Made by a program: the position numbers and the translations under genes. Source: Glycomyces harbinensis (GTDB taxonomy: Bacteria > Actinomycetota > Actinomycetes > Mycobacteriales > Micromonosporaceae). From it: a stretch of 64,000 bases of DNA. This document shows positions 11,211 through 26,897 of the stretch, piece by piece. Numbering within the stretch: position 1 is the first letter of the stretch; each line of letters begins with the position of its first letter. The stretch is from positions 1 through 64,000 of the forward strand of contig NZ_FNAD01000009.1 in NCBI RefSeq assembly GCF_900101745.1, given 5' to 3'. The notes below the pieces were generated by a model. It saw only the letters and a list, made by a program, of their open reading frames with translations. It had not been told where the DNA came from and ran no database searches.

Positions 11211-12023
11211 CTACAGCGCGGCCAGGGCGGCCGTGATGTCGTCGTGCAGGAGCCCGACGTTCGCGTAGACGCCCGGGTTGCCGGCCTCGGCGCAGCCGTA
11301 GCCCCAGCTGACGATGCCGACCAGGACGCCGTCGGCGGACACGAGCGGGCCGCCCGAGTCGCCCTGGCAGGAGTCCACGCCGCCGTTGGCGAGGTCGCCC
11401 GCACACAGCATGGTGGCGTCGTCGAACTCGGCGCCGTAGGCCCCGTCGCACTCGCCGTCGGTGACGTAGGGGACGTCGACGTAGAGCAGGTCCTGCGAGG
11501 TCGAGCCGGACTCGGTGGTGCCCCAGCCGGCGACGGTCAGGGTGCCCCAGTCCTTGGTGTCGGCGTCGGCCAGCGGCAGAGTCTCGGCCCCGGTGATCGG
11601 CTCGGCGAGCCGGATGAGCGACCAGTCGTTGACCATGGTCGAGCCGTCGAAGCCGTCGGCGACGACGATCTCGGCGACCTCGTAGACGTCGGTCTGGGTG
11701 ATGTCGGTGCCGCCGTGGCGGATGACCACGTCGGCGGCGGCGGTGCCCTCGGTGCAGTGGGCGGCGGTGAGGACGACGTCCTCGGCGATGAGCTGGCCGC
11801 CGCAGTAGTTGAACGACGGGTCGCCGGCGTCGGCGAGGGCGACGATCCAGGGGAACTGGCCCTCCTCGGCGGGCTGGCCGCCGATGATCTGGGCGTCGAA
11901 GCCGCCCTCGGGGGCGGCCTCTTCGGCGTTCGCGCCGGTGGTGCCGAGCGCCAGTGCCGCGGCGCCGAGGCCGACGGCGGCGAGGGCGCCGATACGGGTG
12001 AGGGTCTTTCTGCGGTTGTACAC
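11211..12023 (-). CDS. Secreted trypsin-like serine protease (S1)
   Basis: 270 residues. Sec signal peptide over about 1-34 (A-N-A cleavage), a short propeptide EEAAPEGGFDAQ, then the mature end IIGGQ as in trypsins. Catalytic triad: His in LTAAHC, Asp in VNDWSLIRL, Ser in DSCQGDSGGPL. The S1 pocket context VSWGYGCAEAGNPGVY has the chymotrypsin-fold disulphide and Gly. The GTG start at 12023 follows GGAAGGAA. It is a tandem paralogue of the next gene with the same propeptide junction. Secreted; probably a nutrient or developmental protease. Confidence 0.95.
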   Translation of the reverse strand: MYNRRKTLTRIGALAAVGLGAAALALGTTGANAEEAAPEGGFDAQIIGGQPAEEGQFPWIVALADAGDPSFNYCGGQLIAEDVVLTAAHCTEGTAAADVVIRHGGTDITQTDVYEVAEIVVADGFDGSTMVNDWSLIRLAEPITGAETLPLADADTKDWGTLTVAGWGTTESGSTSQDLLYVDVPYVTDGECDGAYGAEFDDATMLCAGDLANGGVDSCQGDSGGPLVSADGVLVGIVSWGYGCAEAGNPGVYANVGLLHDDITAALAAL

Positions 12024-12131
12024 GCGCGAGTTCCTTCCGTAAGGGTGGTGAGGAAGCGGCGATGTTGACTGCCTGCCGCCCCAGACCTTACGGGAAAAGC
12101 ACTCATATTTAAATAATCACGACGCAAGCGA

Positions 12132-12145
12132 TATTTCACTGAATA
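12132..12145 (-). promoter_or_regulatory. Shared protease promoter element, copy 1
   Basis: TATTTCACTGAATA followed by A-CGGC, 109 bp upstream of the protease start. The reverse complement of the same 14-mer lies at a similar distance upstream of the second protease (13242-13255). The conserved near-palindrome in otherwise different, AT-rich promoter regions suggests a common regulator. Confidence 0.5.
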
Positions 12146-12232
12146 ACGGCGAATCACCTTGTTGCGGACATCAATGAGGATGGACGTGGTGCAAACGTCC
12201 AATTCGGTCAACGGCACTGAGGACGGAGCGCG

Positions 12233-12268
12233 GCGGGGGCCGGGCGGGATCGGCCGCCCGGCCCCCGC
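12233..12268 (-). terminator. Terminator of second serine protease gene
   Basis: Perfect 15-bp stem (12233-12247 with 12254-12268, GCGGGGGCCGGGCGG) with a 6-nt loop, 37 bp past the second protease stop. No U-run. It separates the two protease units. Confidence 0.8.
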
Positions 12269-12305
12269 GGGAGCGTGTCGGACCGCCGCGAGGGCGGCCG
12301 CGCGG

Positions 12306-13139
12306 CTACTCCCAGCCCGCGAGGACCTCGTCGATCGCGTCGGCGAAGCCGGCGATCTCCGAGTACACGCCCGGGTTGCCGGCCTCGGCGCAGCCGTAGC
12401 CCCAGCTGACGATGCCCACGAGCACCTGCTCGTCGCCGGCGGGGGTCATGATCGGGCCGCCGGAGTCGCCCTGGCAGGAGTCCACGCCGCCGTTGGCGAG
12501 GTCGCCCGCGCACAGCATGGAGGCCGCGTCGACCTCGTCGGGGTAGGCCGCCTCGCAGTCGGCGTCGCTGACGAAGGGCACCTCGACCCATTCGGCGACG
12601 ACCGGGTACTCCTCCCCGGTGTCGCCCCAGCCGGCGACCTCCAGGACGTCGAGCTCGGCCGACTCGGCGCCGAGCGCGATCGGCTCGACGTCGACCGGTT
12701 CGGCGAGCTTGAGCAGCGCCCAGTCGTTCGCGAACGCGACCGGGTCGTTGTAGTCCTCGGCGACGTGCAGGTCGGCCACGGCGGTCTCCACGATCGCGTC
12801 CGACTCGAGGTCGACCGAACCCGAGAAGATCACGAGGTCCTCGGCGGTGGCGTCCTCGACGCAGTGCGCGGCGGTGAGCACGACGTCCTCGGCGATCACC
12901 GAGCCGCCGCAGAACTGGCGCTCCCAGGGGGTGCCCTCGCCGGGCGAGCCGAGGCCCACGAGCCAGGGGAACTGGCCCTCCTCGGCGGGCTGGCCGCCGA
13001 TGATCTGGGCCTCGAAGCCGCCCTCGGGGGTGTTGTCCTCCGCGTTGGCGGCGACGCCGGCCCACGCGATCGCGGCGGCGCCGACGCCGGCCGCGAGGCC
13101 CGCGCCGAGGCGGATCAGGTGCTTCCTATTCCTGTCCAC
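12306..13139 (-). CDS. Secreted trypsin-like serine protease (S1), tandem paralogue
   Basis: 277 residues from the GTG at 13139 (AAAGGA six bases upstream); a longer frame to 13205 would add a non-signal N-terminus. Signal peptide, then AEDNTPEGGFEAQ and the mature IIGGQPAEEGQFPW identical to the upstream paralogue. Triad: LTAAHC, ANDWALLKL, DSCQGDSGGP. It shares VGIVSWGYGCAEAGNPGVY with the other copy but differs in surface loops (for example the GTPWERQ loop). Tandem duplication followed by divergence of loops suggests different specificity. Confidence 0.95.
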   Translation of the reverse strand: MDRNRKHLIRLGAGLAAGVGAAAIAWAGVAANAEDNTPEGGFEAQIIGGQPAEEGQFPWLVGLGSPGEGTPWERQFCGGSVIAEDVVLTAAHCVEDATAEDLVIFSGSVDLESDAIVETAVADLHVAEDYNDPVAFANDWALLKLAEPVDVEPIALGAESAELDVLEVAGWGDTGEEYPVVAEWVEVPFVSDADCEAAYPDEVDAASMLCAGDLANGGVDSCQGDSGGPIMTPAGDEQVLVGIVSWGYGCAEAGNPGVYSEIAGFADAIDEVLAGWE

Positions 13140-18172: not shown

Positions 18173-18508
18173 TCAAATCTCCGGATCGGTCGGGATCGAG
18201 GCCGTTGTGCCGAACTCCAGGAAGGCCGCGTTGGCCTCCTCCTCGCCGCTCGAGGCCGCGGCCAGCGCCGCCTCCATGCCGTGCAGCGTCCCCCGCAGGT
18301 ACTGCAGGTTCCGCCAGGTCGCGGCGTGGAACTCCAGGTACCGCCCGGCCGCTTCGGGCGCGCCCGGCGCGGTCCCCAGCGCCGGCGCCCGGCTCAGCGT
18401 CCCGGTGCCCAGCACCGGGATCACGTCGTTCTCCAACTCGTCCAGCAGCTCCAGCAGGAGCTGGCGGTACTCCCCGATCGCCGCGGGGTCGAACACTCGC
18501 TCGCCCAT
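18173..18508 (-). CDS. Small alpha-helical protein, type VII-like gene pair
   Basis: 111 residues from ATG 18508 with GAAGGAGG upstream. Two helices (EYRQLLLELLDELENDVIP and ATWRNLQYLRGTLHGMEAAL) separated by a Pro/Gly/Ala loop, an acidic tail and a single Trp in the second helix. This is the size and layout of ESX/WXG100-related or EspC-like partners, though no strict WXG is present. It is the downstream partner of the 517-residue protein 35 bp upstream. Function unknown; inferred from context. Confidence 0.6.
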   Translation of the reverse strand: MGERVFDPAAIGEYRQLLLELLDELENDVIPVLGTGTLSRAPALGTAPGAPEAAGRYLEFHAATWRNLQYLRGTLHGMEAALAAASSGEEEANAAFLEFGTTASIPTDPEI

Positions 18509-18543
18509 GGGTCCTCCTTCGCTCGTGGACCGGCCCGCGCCGG

Positions 18544-20097
18544 TCAGTTGTACGGGTCCTCGTTCGGTTTGACGTAGCCCCAGAGGTTTCCGGTCTCGCG
18601 CCTGGTGAGGTCCTGCGGCCGCTCGTCCTCCTCCGCCTCGTCCTCGTCGTACCGCTTGGCGTCCCTGCCCGCGGCGCCGCCCTGCTGGTGCGCCGGGGCC
18701 ATGCCCGGGCGGACGCCGCCGCCCGCGCCGCCTCCCGCTCCTGCGGGCCCCGCGGTCGGCACCGGTGCGGTGACCGCGGGTCCGAACAGCCCCTGCGGCA
18801 CGCCGCCGGCCCCGCCCGGGCCCATCGCGCCTCCCGCGCGCATCGCGCTGCCGCCGCTGGAGCCGAACGCGCCGCCCGGGCCCGAGCCGAAACCGCCGCC
18901 GGAGGCGAGGCCGCCCGCGACGTCGTCGTCCGCCTCGTCCTCGTCCTGTGGGGCCTGGTCCTCGCGCACCGTCCCGTCGCCGCCGGGCGGGACCGGGCTC
19001 GGGTCCTGCGTCGCCCGCGGGGCGGCCGGCGGCGACGGCCGCTCCGCCTCCGGCGCCGCCAGATCCATATAGGACGTGTCGGCGCCGCCGGGGAGCGGAC
19101 GGTCCTCTCCCGTGGGGCCCAAGGCCGTCAGCTCCTCGCTCTGCCCGTCGCGCTTGGCCGCGATGGCCTCGTCGATCGCCGCCTGCCGTTCGAAGTACCC
19201 CGCCAGCTCGGCGGCGACCCGGTCGGTGAAGAGCTCCTTCGCCTCCTCGCCCGCGAGCGCCCGCACGTCCGCCACGAGCGCCCCGAGTCCCGACAGGGCC
19301 GAGCCGACGCGCTCCTCGATGAACTCCCGCACGTCGGTCGCCAGCCGCGGGTCCGCCCCGGCCAGTTCCATGGCCTTCTCGGCCTCCTCGCAGGTCATCC
19401 GGATGCAGTCGCCGTGCCACCACGCGGGCCGCAGGTGCAGCGAGACGAGGTTCGACCACTCGCCCTCCACGCCGACCATCGGTGCGGGGTAGGGGATCTC
19501 GCCCGAGTCCCCGCCCTGGAGCGTGTAGATCGCCGTCTCGCAGGTCGCCAGTTCGGCGGTGGTCGCGTCGATGTCGTCGATCACGCCCTCCAGGAGCGCC
19601 CGCGCCTCGTCGGCCTGCGCGGCGAACGCCTCGAAGTCCTCTCCGGCCCATCCCTCCGCGAGCGCCGACAGCCGCGACTTCAACCGGTCGGGCCAGGACC
19701 CGATCCGCGCGCCCACCTCGTCGGTCCAGCCGGTGCGCAAGCGCTGCAGGGAGAACGCGTCGGGGTCCTGGGGCCGGACCGCGGTCACCGCGGCCCTGAA
19801 GTCGTCTTCGGTCGGGTAGGCCATGCCCTCGCACCGGGGCTTGAAGCGGTGCAGCTGCCCCTCCGCCGGCACCGCCGACGCCAGCTGCACCCAGTCCTCC
19901 TCGGCGGGGTGCGCGACGGGGTGCGGGCAGGCCGCCGAGGAGCATCCGGCGCGTTCGGCGCCCGAGCCCGCGGTGTCGCCGAAGGCGATCGTGAACTCGA
20001 ACGAGGGCGCCTCCAGCGACGCCTCGAAGTACAGGCCGGCGCCGTCGCCGGCGCCCTCCTCGGCCGCGTCGCCGCTCGCGAACAGGCTGTCGGTCAT
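18544..20097 (-). CDS. Large putative type VII-associated protein with DPY tail
   Basis: 517 residues from ATG 20097 (GGAGGAAGG upstream); a longer frame to 20142 is less likely. Helical middle (about 90-330) with a Trp-rich start (GWTDEVGARIGSWPDRL), then a Pro/Gly/Ala-rich low-complexity region and an acidic stretch. It ends ETGNLWGYVKPNEDPYN. The tail E-x-x-WG-x-x-K-x-x-x-DPY is shared with the 376-residue protein encoded divergently at 20639. No signal peptide or membrane segment. The pair may be cytosolic chaperones, substrates or surface proteins of a type VII system located elsewhere; function is inferred only. Confidence 0.6.
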   Translation of the reverse strand: MTDSLFASGDAAEEGAGDGAGLYFEASLEAPSFEFTIAFGDTAGSGAERAGCSSAACPHPVAHPAEEDWVQLASAVPAEGQLHRFKPRCEGMAYPTEDDFRAAVTAVRPQDPDAFSLQRLRTGWTDEVGARIGSWPDRLKSRLSALAEGWAGEDFEAFAAQADEARALLEGVIDDIDATTAELATCETAIYTLQGGDSGEIPYPAPMVGVEGEWSNLVSLHLRPAWWHGDCIRMTCEEAEKAMELAGADPRLATDVREFIEERVGSALSGLGALVADVRALAGEEAKELFTDRVAAELAGYFERQAAIDEAIAAKRDGQSEELTALGPTGEDRPLPGGADTSYMDLAAPEAERPSPPAAPRATQDPSPVPPGGDGTVREDQAPQDEDEADDDVAGGLASGGGFGSGPGGAFGSSGGSAMRAGGAMGPGGAGGVPQGLFGPAVTAPVPTAGPAGAGGGAGGGVRPGMAPAHQQGGAAGRDAKRYDEDEAEEDERPQDLTRRETGNLWGYVKPNEDPYN

Positions 20098-20310
20098 CGC
20101 CAGCGCCCTTCCTCCGGCCCGGGCGCTCGGCCCGCGCTCCATCGATGCGTGTGCCGCCCATGGAAGACCGCCGTGTCACGAATCCGTCATGCCCCGCGTT
20201 CCACAGAGGCGGGACCGTCCCGTGACGGCGGGCGCGAGAGTATGCGGGACGCCGCCGGGCGTCCGCCCCGACGGGCGTCGACACCTCGAAGACCTCGAAG
20301 GAGGTACCCC

Positions 20311-20628
20311 ATGACCGTGCACATGGACGTTGACGATGTGCGATCGGGCGGCTCCGGGCTCCGCGGCCTCGCCCCCGGCGCGCAGAACGCGTCGCGGAGG
20401 GTGGAGCGCCCGGCGCAGGCCGCGGCCGAGCGCAACCCCGGTTTCGCCACCGGCGACGCGGGCCGCCGGTGGCAGACCGCGCTCGCGGCCTGCACCGCGG
20501 GCATCGAGCGCCGCCTGGACTGGCAGGGCGAGCAGGTGGTCGGCAGCGCCGACGACTTCGACGCCGCCGACCATGCGGCGGGCGACCGCTTCGGCGGCAT
20601 CCACAACGACATTCCCACCGCCGGTTAG
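20311..20628 (+). CDS. EspC-like type VII secretion target
   Basis: 105 residues, ATG at 20311 after AAGGAGG. The layout matches the ESX secretion-associated EspC-like family: MDVDDVRSGGSGLRGLA at the start, central RRWQTALAACTAGIERRL (Trp and Cys region), and a closing DDFDAADHAAGDRFG, with the family's final (A)-x-D-x-AAA-x-F pattern. Small, all-helical, without a signal peptide. The next gene starts 10 bp later and is probably co-expressed as its partner. Confidence 0.75.
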   Translation: MTVHMDVDDVRSGGSGLRGLAPGAQNASRRVERPAQAAAERNPGFATGDAGRRWQTALAACTAGIERRLDWQGEQVVGSADDFDAADHAAGDRFGGIHNDIPTAG

Positions 20629-20638
20629 GAGACCACCC

Positions 20639-21769
20639 ATGCCCAGCTACCAGGAAGCGATGACGGCGGCGCCGTCGGAGTTCCTCGCCTTCGCCGCGGA
20701 GACCACGGCCGCGGCGGGCGACCTCGTCTCCCACCTGGCCGACTACGGCACGAAGGTCGGCGAGATCAACAGCCACTGGAAGGACACCGCGAACGAGGCG
20801 TTCAACGCCGAGGTCACGGCGGTCGTGACCCACATCGGCGATGTCGGGAGCGAGATCGCGGCCGCCTCGACGGTGCTGGACGCGACCGGCGTCCAGCTGT
20901 CCGCCGACTGCACGGCGCTGCAGACCGCCGACGGCGTGCTCAAGGGGCTCGGGTTCGACATCCTGCCCTCGCCGCTGGTGATGCTGAGCGCGGCGCAGCG
21001 CTCGCTCATCGCTTCGGCGGGGCCGCTCGCGGGGCTCCTCGAGGCCTCGCTCCAGGCACAGGCGGCGGCCGGAACGCTGCAGCTGCAGGGGATCCTGGGG
21101 CTGATCAACGCGGCGGACGCGACGTCGGGGGCCGTGCTCGAGTCGATCGCGTCGGTCCTGCAGCCCTTGGAGGACAAGGCGGGCACGGCCCAGGACGATT
21201 CGGCGGGCGCCGGGGACGAGTCGGGCGCCGCGGGTGAGGAGTCCGGCGGCGAAGAGGAAGAAGAAGAGGAGTCCACTGAGGAGGAATCGGAGGAGCCCCA
21301 GGAGGAGGAGCCGGCCGCCTCCGACACGCAGCAGCCGGAGACCCCGCAGGATCCCTCGGCCATGGACGATCTCGCGCAGCCGGAGACGCCGGAGCTGGAC
21401 AATCCTTGGGACGCTTCGGAACTGCCCGACCCCGACGACCTCTCCGGCGGCCTCGCCTCCGGCGGCGGCCTCGGCTCGGGCGGGCTGGGCGGCGGCGGTC
21501 TCGGCGCCGGCGGCCTGGGTTCCGGTGCGGGCGCGGCGACCGCGGGCGGCATGGGAGGCGTGGGCGGTGCGATGAGCGCGCCGGTCGGCGCGGGGGCGAC
21601 CGCCGCGGGCGCCAGGCCGGGCGCGGGCGCCATGACGGGCGCCGGTGCGGGCGGGGCCCGCGGCGGACCCGGCGGCGACGAGGAGACCGGCCGCGAGACG
21701 CACCTGATCGAGGACCCCGAAGAGGACGTGTGGGGCATCGGCAAGGCGGACGACGACCCCTACGCCTGA
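20639..21769 (+). CDS. WXG-like helical protein with Gly-rich and DPY tail
   Basis: 376 residues from ATG 20639. The N-terminal ~100 residues are helical with HWKDTANEAF at the turn, resembling WXG100/PPE-type helical hairpins. A hydrophobic Ala-rich region (about 105-180) follows, then an acidic Glu/Ser/Pro region with a nine-residue acidic run, a Gly-rich region, and the tail EEDVWGIGKADDDPYA. The tail matches the divergent 517-residue protein. This looks like a type VII substrate with a disordered C-terminus; no ESX core gene is in the window. Confidence 0.65.
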   Translation: MPSYQEAMTAAPSEFLAFAAETTAAAGDLVSHLADYGTKVGEINSHWKDTANEAFNAEVTAVVTHIGDVGSEIAAASTVLDATGVQLSADCTALQTADGVLKGLGFDILPSPLVMLSAAQRSLIASAGPLAGLLEASLQAQAAAGTLQLQGILGLINAADATSGAVLESIASVLQPLEDKAGTAQDDSAGAGDESGAAGEESGGEEEEEEESTEEESEEPQEEEPAASDTQQPETPQDPSAMDDLAQPETPELDNPWDASELPDPDDLSGGLASGGGLGSGGLGGGGLGAGGLGSGAGAATAGGMGGVGGAMSAPVGAGATAAGARPGAGAMTGAGAGGARGGPGGDEETGRETHLIEDPEEDVWGIGKADDDPYA

Positions 21770-23143: not shown

Positions 23144-23815
23144 CTACTCGAACGCGTGCGCCAGCAGGGCGCTCAACCGCTCCGCCGCCCGCTCCTGGAC
23201 GATCCGCACCGTCGCCGCCGCCCGCGCCGACAATTCCTCGCACTCGGTGTCGAGCGTCGCGTTCGGCACCAGGAACCTGAACCCGGTCAACCGCCCCTCC
23301 AGGTTCACCTCCGCCGAGCACAGGTCGTCGTCGGTGGTGTGCGCGAACCGCTCGGTGCTCGCGGCGACGAGCTCGCGGATCTCGTCGCCCCGCCGGTCGG
23401 GCACCCGCGCGGCCACGAGGTCGGCGTGCGTCCGCTCCAGGCGCAGCACGTGCTCGGAGCGGGCCGCCTCGGCCGCCGTCCACGCCGCCTCGATCGCGTC
23501 CGCCACCGCCCGGTTGCTCAACCGGTCGATCGTGGGGCTCAACGCGAGCGACCGCAGCCGGCCGGTGTAGTCCAGGCGCAGCCACGCGACCCGGTCGGCG
23601 TCCGAGCCGTCGAAGCCGCGGCCGGTCAAGTCCTCGACCAGCGCCGACGCCCGCTCGGCGAGGTCCGCCGCCCGCCCGTACCGCTCCCGGGACGGGGCCG
23701 CCCCCAGCGCCCGGTCCACCGCGTCCCGCACCGGCCCCGCCGGAAGCCGGGACGCGGCCCGACGCCCCCGGGACACGCGGTCCTCGTAGTCCTCGGGGAA
23801 CTCCATCCGCTCCAT
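23144..23815 (-). CDS. YbaB/EbfC-like protein with two domain copies
   Basis: 223 residues from ATG 23815 (GGAAGG upstream). Two YbaB-like halves can be seen: RVAWLRLDYTGRLRSLALSP followed by ADAIEAAWTAAEAARSEHV, and later CSAEVNLEGRLTGFRFL followed by a long helix to the end. The YbaB fold is a beta-hairpin plus long helix acting as a nucleoid-associated or type VII-cluster protein. The degree of match to each half is partial. Divergent from the AfsR/SARP gene and may share its operator. Confidence 0.65.
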   Translation of the reverse strand: MERMEFPEDYEDRVSRGRRAASRLPAGPVRDAVDRALGAAPSRERYGRAADLAERASALVEDLTGRGFDGSDADRVAWLRLDYTGRLRSLALSPTIDRLSNRAVADAIEAAWTAAEAARSEHVLRLERTHADLVAARVPDRRGDEIRELVAASTERFAHTTDDDLCSAEVNLEGRLTGFRFLVPNATLDTECEELSARAAATVRIVQERAAERLSALLAHAFE

Positions 23816-23963: not shown

Positions 23964-26897
23964 ATGGCGACCCTCGACGTGCGGCTGCTCGGGCCCCTTG
24001 AGGTCCGGATCGACGGCGAGAGCGTCGCGGTCCCCCGCGGCAACACCGCCACCGTCCTGGCGATCCTTCTCGACGAGGCCGGCAGCGTCGTCCCGCTGGG
24101 CGACCTCGTCCGCGCCGTCTACGGCCCCGACATCCCCCTGGACCCCGACACGCAGGTCCAGAACACCATCGGGATCCTGCGGCGCAAGCTCGGCGCCGCC
24201 CGCGAACGCCTCGCCACCGTCGGGCGCGCCTACCGCTTCGACGTCGCGACCGATGAGCTGGACCTCCTGCGCTGCAAGGCCAAAGACGCCGAAGCGCGGC
24301 GCCTGCGCACCGAAGGCGACCTCGCCGGGGCCGCCGCCGCCCTGCGCGACGCCCTCGCCGAATGGCGCGGCCCGGCCCTCGCCGACCTGTCCGGCGCCGC
24401 CGTCGAGGCCGTGCGCCGCCGCTACGACGAGCACCGCCTCACCCTCCTGGAGCGGCGCATCGACCTCGACCTCGAACTGGGCCGCCACGCCGAGGTCGTC
24501 GAGGAGCTGCGCCAGATCGTCGCCGTCCACGACACCCGGCAGCGCTTCACCTCCCTGCTCATGCGCGCCCTCCACGCCTCCGGGCGCGCCGCCGAGGCCC
24601 TGGACGCCTATGAGGCCCTTCGGGTCCGCCTCGCCGACGCCCTCGGCGTCGACCCCGACCAGGCCCTGCGCGACCAGCACGTCCGGATCCTGCGCGCCGC
24701 CCCCGCGGACCCCGGCGAGGGCGACCGGGCCCCCGCGGCCGAACCGCCCCGCCGCGTCCCCGCCACCCTCCCGCGCGGCAACACCCGCTTCACCGGCCGC
24801 GACAACGAGACCCGCCTCCTCGACGGCTACCTCGACGCCGCCGACGGCGAAGCCGGCCTCGCCGTCATCACCGGCATGGGCGGCGTCGGCAAGACCTCCC
24901 TCGCCGTGAACTGGGCCCACCGGGTCAAGCACCGCTTCCCCGACGGCCAGCTGTACTTCAACCTGCGCGGCTTCGACCCCGCCGCACCCGGCGTGGAGCC
25001 GGGCGCGGTCCTCGCCGAAGCCCTCGTGGCCCTGGGCGTCGAGACGCAGCAGCTCCCGGTCGGACTCGACGAGCGGATCGGCCTGTACCGCACCGTCCTC
25101 GCCCAGCGCAAGATCCTCGTGGTGTTCGACAACGCCCGCGACGCCGCGCAGGTCCGCCCGCTCCTGCCCGTCGCCCCCGGCAGCTTCACCCTCGTCACCA
25201 GCCGCGACCGCCTCGCCGCCCTCGACGCCACCGAGGGCGCCGACACCGTCCCGCTCGAACTGTTCTCCGAGTCCGAGGCGTGGGCGCTGCTGGTGCGGCG
25301 CATCGGCCTCGACCGGGCGCTCGCCGACGAGGCCGCCGTGCAGCGCATCATCGCCGCCTGCGGCCGGCTCCCGCTGGCGCTCACCCTCATCGGCGCGTGG
25401 ATCGCCGCCAACCGGAGCCTGTCCCTCGCGACCCTCGCCGACCGCCTCGAGCGGGCCACCAGCGTCTTCAAAGTCCTCGCCTCCACCGACCTCGCCTCCG
25501 ACCCCCGCTCGATCTTCGCCTGCTCCTACCAGGCCCTCGGCACCCTCGCGGCCCAGGCGTTCCGCCTCTTCGGGCTCCACCCCGGGCCCGACCTCACGGT
25601 CGCCGCCATGGCGAGCCTCATGGGCGCCGCGCCCGTCGACGCCGAGGCGGCCCTGTCCGAACTCGCCGGCGTCCACCTGATCGACCAGCCCCGCGAAGGC
25701 CGCTACACCATGCACGACCTCCTGCGCGCCTACGCGAAAGAGCGCTTCGCCGAGGAGGTCGCCCCCGAACGCCGCCGCGCCGCCGAGGAGCGCATGCTCG
25801 ACTACCTCCTCCACACCACCCGCGCCGCCGACGAGCTGCTCACCCAGCACGGCGGCGGCCTCGCCTTCGGCGATCCGGCCCCGGGCGTGACCACCGAACC
25901 CGTCCCCGACCTGCGCGCGGCCGCGGCCTGGTTCACCACCGAGTACGACGTGCTTCTCGGGCTGCTGCGGGGCGGACGGGGACTCGACGACACCCGCACC
26001 TGGCGCCTGGCCTGGTGCCTCGCCGAGTACATGATGATCCGCAGCCTCGGACGCGACCTGCGCGAGGCCCAGACGGCGGCGCTCGCCGCCGCCGAGCGCA
26101 GCGGCGACGGATTCGGCCAGGCCGTCGCCCTCGGATACCTCTCGGCGGCGCTGATGCTCGACGGCGACCACGAAGGCGCCGCAGCACTGCTCGAACGGGC
26201 GACCGCGCACGCCGAGGCGACCGACCACCCCTGGGCCCTGGGATTCGTCCACTACGGACACAGTGTGCGGGCCGGGCGGGAAGAGCGCCACGAGGACGCC
26301 TGCGCCGCCGCCGAGACCGCCAGACTCCTCTTCCTCGAGGCCGGCGACCCGTTCTGGGAGTTCCGGGCCATATGGGTCGTCGGCTGGCATGCCGCCCAGC
26401 TCGGCGCGATCGAGGAGGCCTACGCCCGCTTCAACGAGTTCCACGCCGCCGCAAAGGAAGCCGGGTCCCAGCTCGGCATCGCGAACGGCATGCTCGGATT
26501 CGGCTTCATCGCCCAGCTCCGGGGCCGCTTCAACGACGCCCTCGAGTGCTACGCCGACGCCGAGCGCGGCTTCACGGCGATCGGCTACCTCCCCAGCGCC
26601 GCACTGGCCCGGGAGCGGACCGGCGACGCCCGGGCGGCCCTCGGCGACACGGCGGCGGCGCGGCGCGACTGGCTCGCCGCGGAAGCGGTCTACGCCGAAT
26701 TCGGATGCGTCCTCGAACTCGCCCGCGTCCGCACCCGCCTCGCCGACCCCGGCACGGCCCTGAGCGGCCCCGAAGAGGGGCTCATCGTCCTGAGCCCCGG
26801 CAGCGCGCACGAACGGGTCGAAGCCGCGCTCCACAAGGCGCTCAACGCATTCGGATACGACGTACTGGAACCGGCCTCCGACGAGACCGCACGATGA
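23964..26897 (+). CDS. AfsR/SARP-family transcriptional regulator with NB-ARC and TPR
   Basis: 977 residues. Winged-helix DNA-binding domain (about 1-95), BTAD (about 100-245), NB-ARC ATPase (about 270-530) with Walker A VITGMGGVGKTSLA, Walker B KILVVFDNARD and the GRLPLAL motif, then a TPR-like helical region to the end. This is the large AfsR-type architecture that controls secondary metabolism or development. ATG at 23964 follows GAAGG; a longer frame starts at 23925. It overlaps the next gene by 4 nt. No biosynthetic cluster is adjacent; the downstream partner and the divergent YbaB-like gene are the nearest candidate targets. Confidence 0.92.
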   Translation: MATLDVRLLGPLEVRIDGESVAVPRGNTATVLAILLDEAGSVVPLGDLVRAVYGPDIPLDPDTQVQNTIGILRRKLGAARERLATVGRAYRFDVATDELDLLRCKAKDAEARRLRTEGDLAGAAAALRDALAEWRGPALADLSGAAVEAVRRRYDEHRLTLLERRIDLDLELGRHAEVVEELRQIVAVHDTRQRFTSLLMRALHASGRAAEALDAYEALRVRLADALGVDPDQALRDQHVRILRAAPADPGEGDRAPAAEPPRRVPATLPRGNTRFTGRDNETRLLDGYLDAADGEAGLAVITGMGGVGKTSLAVNWAHRVKHRFPDGQLYFNLRGFDPAAPGVEPGAVLAEALVALGVETQQLPVGLDERIGLYRTVLAQRKILVVFDNARDAAQVRPLLPVAPGSFTLVTSRDRLAALDATEGADTVPLELFSESEAWALLVRRIGLDRALADEAAVQRIIAACGRLPLALTLIGAWIAANRSLSLATLADRLERATSVFKVLASTDLASDPRSIFACSYQALGTLAAQAFRLFGLHPGPDLTVAAMASLMGAAPVDAEAALSELAGVHLIDQPREGRYTMHDLLRAYAKERFAEEVAPERRRAAEERMLDYLLHTTRAADELLTQHGGGLAFGDPAPGVTTEPVPDLRAAAAWFTTEYDVLLGLLRGGRGLDDTRTWRLAWCLAEYMMIRSLGRDLREAQTAALAAAERSGDGFGQAVALGYLSAALMLDGDHEGAAALLERATAHAEATDHPWALGFVHYGHSVRAGREERHEDACAAAETARLLFLEAGDPFWEFRAIWVVGWHAAQLGAIEEAYARFNEFHAAAKEAGSQLGIANGMLGFGFIAQLRGRFNDALECYADAERGFTAIGYLPSAALARERTGDARAALGDTAAARRDWLAAEAVYAEFGCVLELARVRTRLADPGTALSGPEEGLIVLSPGSAHERVEAALHKALNAFGYDVLEPASDETAR

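What the first reader, a model, noticed from the sequence alone, without database searches (positions are those of the whole stretch)
18173..21769. Divergent type VII-like cassettes sharing a WG...K...DPY tail
The 517- and 376-residue proteins differ in body but share the terminal E-x-x-WG-x-x-K-x-x-x-DPY motif after acidic, Gly/Pro-rich regions. Each is paired with a small helical protein. A shared C-terminal motif suggests recognition by the same secretion or assembly partner. No ESX core genes are nearby, so this may be an orphan secretion-substrate locus or a different complex.
Basis: partly seen in the sequence, partly recalled or inferred. Interest (0 to 1): 0.6.

Follow-up and report, generated by a model that had tools for sequence, protein, structure and literature searches.

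The report
Tailed type VII secretion substrate pairs
Two neighbouring gene pairs in a soil actinomycete most likely encode proteins exported by its type VII secretion machine, and both long proteins end in a conserved tail that elsewhere sits on proteins encoded beside that machine, so the tail may be an overlooked address label.

Summary
Four genes form two divergent pairs, and the 517- and 376-residue proteins share a Gly-rich module and a near-C-terminal tail. The genome is a Glycomyces. It carries nine such tails, all on WXG/PPE-like proteins; the profile's next hit there is E = 0.2. The four-gene cassette is duplicated on another contig and recurs at 16 of 16 tailed P0003 loci from other Glycomyces. 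Both bodies carry a WXG-type hairpin and resemble PPE41 and EsxB in predicted structure. One ESX machine is encoded on another contig.

Decisive evidence: outside this genome, 44 of 394 genomes of the class have the tail (consensus TWLxEDExVWG). In 37 of the 44 it lies 5.6-10.4 kb from the ESX ATPase gene eccC; in the other seven the best tail hit lies near a contig end.

Best reading: ESX substrates, each long protein with a small partner, whose tail is a shared machine-recognition (or surface-assembly) element. It may stand in for the usual YxxxD/E signal, which is not conserved here. Secretion and tail binding are inferred, not shown. My paper searches found no description of the tail. I rate this a new variant of a known kind: a dispersed, genus-wide expansion of tailed substrates.

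The parts
18173..18508 (-). P0001, 111-aa small partner of P0002; probably helical (not modelled); invariant W, N, Q, L, R in a W-x-N-x-Q-x-L-R block
   Evidence: a same-strand family member lies within four genes of 77 of 80 P0002-family genes
18544..20097 (-). P0002, 517-aa tailed WXG-type protein; W150-x-G152 at a helical turn; C52, C57, H221, C231 nearly invariant
18643..19092 (-). Gly/Pro-rich acidic linker of P0002 (aa 336-485)
   Evidence: less conserved than body and tail over 11 sequences (0.66 against 0.85 and 0.76)
18547..18642 (-). near-C-terminal tail of P0002 (aa 486-517, ...RRETGNLWGYVKPNEDPYN)
20098..20310 (.). intergenic region between the two divergent gene pairs, probably with both promoters (inferred, not scanned)
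   Evidence: gene positions
20311..20628 (+). P0004, 105-aa small partner of P0003; no Pfam or NCBIfam family; likeness to EspC is my impression only
   Evidence: family member directly upstream of 17 of 18 P0003-family genes
20639..21769 (+). P0003, 376-aa tailed PPE-like protein; W47-x-D49 at the hairpin turn
21179..21670 (+). acidic then Gly-rich linker of P0003 (aa 181-344)
   Evidence: conservation 0.63 against 0.76 in body and 0.76 in tail, 11 sequences; composition
21671..21766 (+). C-terminal tail of P0003 (aa 345-376, ...LIEDPEEDVWGIGKADDDPYA)
23144..23815 (-). neighbour of about 224 aa, no Pfam family; role unknown
   Evidence: a like-placed gene stands next to the C16 cassette and relatives beside several cassettes elsewhere
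23964..26897 (+). BTAD/NB-ARC regulator (AfsR/SARP type, name recalled), possible regulator of the cassette
   Evidence: PF03704, E = 7e-37; like-placed gene beside the C16 cassette and relatives beside several cassettes elsewhere

Best explanation
The locus encodes two pairs of type VIIa (ESX) secretion substrates: P0001 with P0002, and P0004 with P0003. In each pair a small protein is made with a long protein that has an N-terminal WXG/PPE-like helical domain, a Gly-rich acidic linker and a conserved near-C-terminal tail. I propose that each pair forms a heterodimer in the cytosol, and that the ESX machine encoded elsewhere in the genome exports it folded. The shared tail would dock these substrates onto the machine, most likely onto EccC, and so do the job that YxxxD/E and the EsxB C-terminal peptide do in mycobacteria. 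Shown: the tail family, its restriction to WXG/PPE-like proteins in this genome, its close linkage to eccC in other families, the conserved pairing, and the predicted fold. Inferred: heterodimer formation, export, and the binding partner of the tail.
For: (1) In this genome the tail profile finds nine proteins, seven of the P0002 family and two of the P0003 family, and nothing else credible. (2) Over 394 genomes of the class, tails occur in 38 (37 besides this one), or 45 with a wider profile (44 besides this one). In 37 of those 44 a tail lies 5.6-10.4 kb from a TIGR03924 EccC on the same contig (positions; distances computed). Of the seven genomes found only with the wider profile, none of which contributed to it, six lie 6.5-10.4 kb from EccC. 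(3) In 17 stretches fetched around such hits, 13 hold a gene with a tail-profile match and 12 of these 13 also hold Ecc genes. Five of ten tailed proteins scanned have a WXG100 or PPE match, all below the Pfam cut-off. (4) The P0003 N-terminal model (pLDDT 87) aligns with PPE41, 2g38_B: 159 residues, rmsd 2.5, Z 10.1; and with EsxEF: 76 residues, rmsd 1.3, Z 11.6. The P0002 body model (pLDDT 87) has PPE41 as its top three Foldseek hits, and the three best EsxB rows align at rmsd 1.6-2.0 over 86-91 residues. (5) Conserved pairing. (6) An ESX set is present: EccC over cut-off, EccB, EccD, EccE, two S8 proteases, two WXG100 proteins. (7) No long hydrophobic stretch by hydropathy (no signal-peptide predictor was run). 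(8) A C-terminal EsxB peptide binds the EccC ATPase3 domain in M. tuberculosis and T. curvata, with different sequences in each (PMC6954902, passages read).
Against: No secretion data exist. None of the four proteins reaches a Pfam or NCBIfam cut-off. The best Foldseek E-values are weak (0.031 and 0.060), and BAR-domain proteins tie with the T7SS proteins in the structural Z-scores. The tail is not strictly terminal: 5 of 91 Glycomyces proteins have 46-49 residues after WG, and 8 of 17 tails from other genomes have 42-79, unlike the EsxB peptide. None of the genomes of the same order outside the family matched, although 38 of them have EccC, so the tail is not needed for ESX export as such. 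A P0003 relative in L089 has no tail. Some second hits are not tied to a listed EccC: G332:C358 (9e-9), G346:C60 (2.8e-9) and C46 (3e-4), G196:C3 (6e-5), G123:C22 (7e-4). EccC docking was not tested.
Confidence: 0.6

Rival explanations
1. They are ESX substrates, but the tail works outside the cell: it anchors, oligomerises or is trimmed after export (for example by one of the two subtilisin-like proteases of the ESX locus), building a surface assembly like that proposed for EspB (recalled).
For: The Gly-rich linker plus distal tail looks like a surface-assembly module. Two S8 proteases are in the ESX locus. Some proteins carry 42-79 extra residues after the motif, as an assembly site would tolerate. 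C-terminal processing of PPE68 at the cell surface is reported (PMC9765416, passages read).
Against: No cleavage site or surface data. The YxxxD/E signal is not conserved in these proteins, which leaves the targeting role unfilled unless the tail or another feature does it.
Confidence: 0.22
2. The tail recruits a co-secreted substrate rather than the machine, as the last ten residues of PPE68 are needed for EspE export.
For: PPE68 precedent: deleting its 10-residue charged C-terminal tail blocks EspE secretion (PMC9765416, passages read). The two tailed proteins are encoded together at 16 of 16 tailed P0003 loci.
Against: The tail sits on dissimilar bodies in five families of the class, this one included, so a common partner such as the machine is more economical than a specific co-substrate.
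Confidence: 0.1
3. The proteins are not secreted; they are cytosolic or membrane-edge scaffold proteins that only share WXG ancestry.
For: No direct secretion evidence; acidic, Gly-rich composition; no hydrophobic N-terminal stretch.
Against: Linkage of the tail to eccC in 37 of 44 genomes and the PPE/Esx-like predicted folds.
Confidence: 0.08

Closest known systems
PE/PPE heterodimeric substrates of mycobacterial ESX systems (PPE41, PPE15, PPE4)
   Same: Helical domain of about 180 aa with a WXG-type turn, a small partner encoded next to it, a C-terminal extension; predicted fold match
   Different: No Pfam PF00823 match in P0002 or P0003, the small partners match no PE or other family, YxxxD/E not conserved in the partners, EspG not found but that search had no positive control
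WXG100 proteins (EsxA/EsxB)
   Same: W-x-G (P0002) or W-x-D (P0003) at the turn of a helical hairpin; the hairpin superposes on EsxB/EsxEF
   Different: 376-517 residues instead of about 100; below Pfam and NCBIfam cut-offs
EspB of ESX-1 (compared from passages in PMC11217815)
   Same: Helical N-terminal domain with a WXG motif, substrate class
   Different: EspB is said there to carry a signal sequence and to have no apparent partner; here each long protein has a conserved small neighbour. EspB was not compared by sequence here
Tailed proteins near eccC in other actinomycete families (one matches NCBIfam 'AAWKG family' below cut-off)
   Same: The same tail, mostly after a Gly-rich stretch
   Different: One to three hits per genome, in 37 of 44 genomes near eccC, and V-[ILV]-G follows in 16 of 17 tails read; in Glycomyces up to nine, away from the ESX locus in this genome, usually ending [DN]P[YF]
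EsxB C-terminal signal peptide that binds EccC ATPase3 (PMC6954902, passages read)
   Same: Short C-terminal sequence recognised by the machine; sequence varies between systems
   Different: That peptide is strictly terminal and on a 100-aa protein; tail binding to EccC is untested here

Membership tests
Type VIIa (ESX) secretion substrate | helical hairpin / PPE-like fold with WXG-type turn | tested here: met
   Predicted models and matches to PPE41, EsxB, EsxEF; W150 and G152 in 79 of 79 P0002-family bodies; W-x-D in 18 and W-x-G in 2 of 20 P0003-family rows. Caveat: weak Foldseek E-values, BAR domains tie
Type VIIa (ESX) secretion substrate | YxxxD/E signal in the pair | tested here: not met
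   Present in 4 of 79 P0001-family, 0 of 18 P0003-family (first 190 aa) and 4 of 17 P0004-family members, the last as YMEVE near the N-terminus. The pattern occurs somewhere in the first 340 aa of 71 of 80 P0002-family members, but at one alignment column in at most 23 of 79 bodies
Type VIIa (ESX) secretion substrate | an ESX machine in the same genome | tested here: met
   EccC over cut-off; EccB, EccD, EccE, two S8 proteases, two WXG100 proteins, on contig C33
Type VIIa (ESX) secretion substrate | export dependent on EccC | not testable with these tools
   needs a mutant and proteomics
WXG100 family (PF06013 / TIGR03930) | score above the curated cut-off | tested here: not met
   PF06013: 20.9 (P0002) and 17.5 bits (P0003) against 27.3; TIGR03930: 18 bits for P0002 against 44.85, P0003 not listed
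WXG100 family (PF06013 / TIGR03930) | about 100 residues | tested here: not met
   517 and 376 aa
PPE family (PF00823) | profile match | tested here: not met
   PF00823 not listed for P0002 or P0003 at E <= 10
PPE family (PF00823) | PPE-like fold of about 180 residues | tested here: met
   P0003: 159 residues on 2g38_B, rmsd 2.5, Z 10.1; P0002: 161 residues, rmsd 3.5, Z 7.8; same caveat as above
PPE family (PF00823) | EspG chaperone in the genome | tested here: inconclusive
   no PF14011 match, but no control genome rang either
EspC family (PF10824) | profile match of the small partners | tested here: not met
   P0001 and P0004 have no Pfam match; the genome's four PF10824 hits, three over the cut-off, lie elsewhere

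The most novel reading that the evidence does not exclude
The tail (LxEDxxVWG plus a variable end) is a recognition signal of many non-mycobacterial actinomycete ESX systems that replaces YxxxD/E. It lets dissimilar bodies be exported by one machine, and Glycomyces has used it to build a dispersed repertoire of up to nine substrates per genome away from the ESX locus.
Probability: 0.35. Interest if true: 0.75.

Novelty: new variant of a known kind. Interest (0 to 1): 0.55.

Why it matters
How ESX machines outside mycobacteria choose their substrates is, as far as I know, poorly understood. A short tail that tracks the ESX locus across families would let substrates be predicted from sequence alone, and gives one directly testable signal. 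Glycomyces could serve as an organism in which one machine serves many paired, tailed substrates. The conserved Cys/Cys/His/Cys set in the P0002 family also hints at a metal-binding or redox-sensitive substrate body.

Tried and rejected
A first DNA pattern for the tail had one base too few and found nothing; corrected. The corrected pattern with one mismatch also hit C12:264264, which the tail profile did not confirm and I take as chance.

Pfam and NCBIfam give no family above cut-off for the four proteins. Sequence searches of solved structures gave nothing significant (best E 0.11 and 0.31), though EsxA or ESAT-6-like chains are among the eight listed for P0003. No plasmid record gave a tblastn match to P0003, and no viral contig a relative of P0002 by the patterns used, so a mobile or phage origin has no support here.

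Relatives of P0002 in the 84,980-species collection: 73 loci, 72 titled Glycomyces and one an unassigned MAG contig. This search used one peptide pattern, so a wider spread is not excluded. Polymorphic toxin was considered: no toxin domain was recognised in either long protein (PADLOC and PHROGs were not run).

Paper searches that could have shown a description of the tail gave none in the listings. Searches searched sequence words: 28 found nothing, 75 five papers of which the three listed are unrelated. Figures are not held. Passages were read in PMC9765416, PMC11217815 and PMC6954902; of other papers only the listing was seen.

Limits: my gene caller is home-made and split or missed genes in places (three tailed fragments; P0002 of L067). 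P0002-family members were found with a P0002-based query, so their presence is guaranteed; what is informative is the tail, the partner and the P0004-P0003 pair beside them. Class searches score at most about 20 candidates per genome, so copy numbers outside Glycomyces are lower bounds. The EccC table was cut, so unlisted second copies exist. Seven genomes have no listed EccC on the contig of their best tail hit: G181, G189, G224, G251, G330, G346, G362. In all seven that hit lies within 6.4 kb of a contig end (six within 1.7 kb; positions), so the linkage cannot be judged; G224 has no EccC at E <= 1e-100.

Full report
What is there. The four genes sit as stated: P0001 (18173-18508, -) and P0002 (18544-20097, -) diverge from P0004 (20311-20628, +) and P0003 (20639-21769, +). 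P0002 and P0003 each have an N-terminal body, a Gly-rich acidic C-terminal part (22% and 24% Gly; 15% and 23% Asp+Glu) and a tail. Hydropathy shows no long hydrophobic stretch in any of the four (maximal 19-residue mean 1.37); no signal-peptide predictor was run.

The tail is real and specific. A profile built without the window rows recovers both window tails from 700 six-frame ORFs of the window, with the next hit at 0.88. If the close C16 cassette is also left out, P0002 is lost, so its tail is a diverged version; this is a weakness of the 'same motif' claim for P0002 taken alone. In the genome (6.17 Mb, 35 contigs) the nine tailed proteins stand at E <= 4e-12 and the next hit is 0.195.

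Family and cassette. Besides the window, tailed P0002 relatives lie on C16, C12 (three), C34 and C13, each with a P0001-like gene nearby. The complete divergent four-gene cassette recurs on C16. The window is from a Glycomyces: 72 of 73 relative loci bear that genus name. Among 1102 genes called in these loci, the tail profile finds 91 at E <= 1.2e-5, the next at 0.78. Of 86 proteins matching the P0002 profile (six of them also P0003-family), 78 have the tail, 7 end with the locus and 1 has a variant tail. Of 18 P0003-family proteins 16 have it; the two without are in L089, one running to the locus end and one a 173-aa relative. All 16 tailed P0003 loci show P1-P2 diverging from P4-P3 (in L067 only a fragment of P2 was called). 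Of 80 P0002-family genes, 77 have a same-strand P0001-family gene within four genes. All 91 tails contain WG; 86 end 8-12 residues after it, 5 have 46-49 more; DPY follows in 65, NPY in 8, DPF in 5. Tail copies per genome in the genus: 1 to 9, median 7, present in 22 of 22 genomes.

Link to the ESX machine. The genome has an ESX locus on C33: EccC, EccB, EccD, EccE, two subtilases and two WXG100 proteins. It also holds a 421-aa protein with a sub-threshold WXG100_2 match whose C-terminus contains RETWLREDDVDW, which looks like a degenerate tail, though the tail profile did not pick it up; its relative in G196 has the full tail. In 394 genomes of the class, tails besides this genome's occur in 37 (profile A1) or 44 (profile A7). 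EccC at E <= 1e-100 occurs in 225 of the 394. In 37 of the 44 a tail lies 5.6-10.4 kb from an EccC on the same contig; the other seven are told under Tried and rejected. Of seven genomes that only A7 found, and that did not contribute to it, six are 6.5-10.4 kb from EccC and one (G346) is at a contig end. Of 17 stretches fetched, 13 hold a called gene with a tail-profile match, 12 of these together with Ecc genes. In L167, L172, L175 and L176 no called gene matched the profile; in L172 a tail was picked up by pattern. None of the 38 EccC-bearing genomes of the same order outside the family matched, so many ESX systems do without this tail.

Fold. AlphaFold models of the P0002 body (aa 45-335, 49 sequences) and the P0003 N-terminus (aa 1-190, 20 sequences) have mean pLDDT 87. 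In P0003 the W47-x-D49 turn separates helices 13-46 and 50-103. Of 20 rows, 18 have W-x-D and the two from L089 W-x-G. Structural neighbours are PPE41, PPE15, PPE4, EsxA, EsxB and EsxEF. Foldseek E-values are weak (best 0.031 and 0.060), and BAR-domain proteins score equally in the Z ranking, as helical bundles often do, so the fold claim leans on the top Foldseek ranks and on the WXG-type turn. In the P0002 family C52, C57, H221 and C231 are conserved in 76, 76, 79 and 79 of 79.

Signal. YxxxD/E, described as required for known mycobacterial substrates (PMC6954902, passages read), is not conserved in the P0001, P0003 or P0004 families, while an Esx protein of the core locus has YQEVE near its C-terminus (sequence). 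In the P0002 family such patterns are common but at one alignment column in at most 23 of 79 bodies. Together with the tail's link to eccC this suggests, but does not show, that the tail targets these pairs. Precedents: the EsxB C-terminal peptide binds EccC ATPase3 with system-specific sequence (PMC6954902), and the last ten residues of PPE68 are needed for EspE secretion (PMC9765416, passages read).

Judgement. That these are ESX substrates I hold at about 0.85; that the tail acts in recognition before export at about 0.5-0.6; surface assembly and co-substrate recruitment are the main rivals. The kind is known (type VII substrates). What is new, as far as my searches show, is the tail, its spread across actinomycete ESX loci, and its multiplication on paired, dispersed substrates in Glycomyces.

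Noticed in passing
window 18547-19965 (P0002 family): C52, C57, H221 and C231 are nearly invariant in the P0002 family (76, 76, 79, 79 of 79): a possible metal-binding or redox site in a WXG-type substrate.
   Followed up: partly
window 23144-23815 and 23964-26897: A protein of about 224 aa without a Pfam family and a BTAD/NB-ARC regulator lie near both cassettes of this genome and beside several in other Glycomyces; in the window three small genes stand between them and the cassette.
   Followed up: partly
L029 (C12:95001-115000): A large cluster with two tailed proteins, a PPE-like 315-aa protein (PF00823, E = 1e-4, below cut-off) and several unassigned proteins, away from the ESX core.
   Followed up: no
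C12:154281, C12:167606, C14:35670, C29:82723 (L001-L004): EspC-family genes (three over the cut-off) next to helical-looking proteins and unassigned genes that look like polymorphic-toxin loci, perhaps another set of type VII substrates.
   Followed up: no
L029:12502-13245 and L034:7346-8056: Lipoprotein-like genes of 236-247 aa encoded between P0001-like and P0002-like genes at two of the paralogous loci.
   Followed up: no
L089:11772-17093: Two P0003-like proteins with a true W-x-G and no tail seen, one beside a P0004-like gene and cut by the locus end; an older form of the pair may exist.
   Followed up: no
window 11211-13139: Two adjacent, similar proteins that look like secreted trypsin-like proteases (by eye).
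   Followed up: no
L182:9622-11694: A tailed protein of another genome matches NCBIfam 'AAWKG family' below its cut-off, so part of that annotated family may carry the tail.
   Followed up: no
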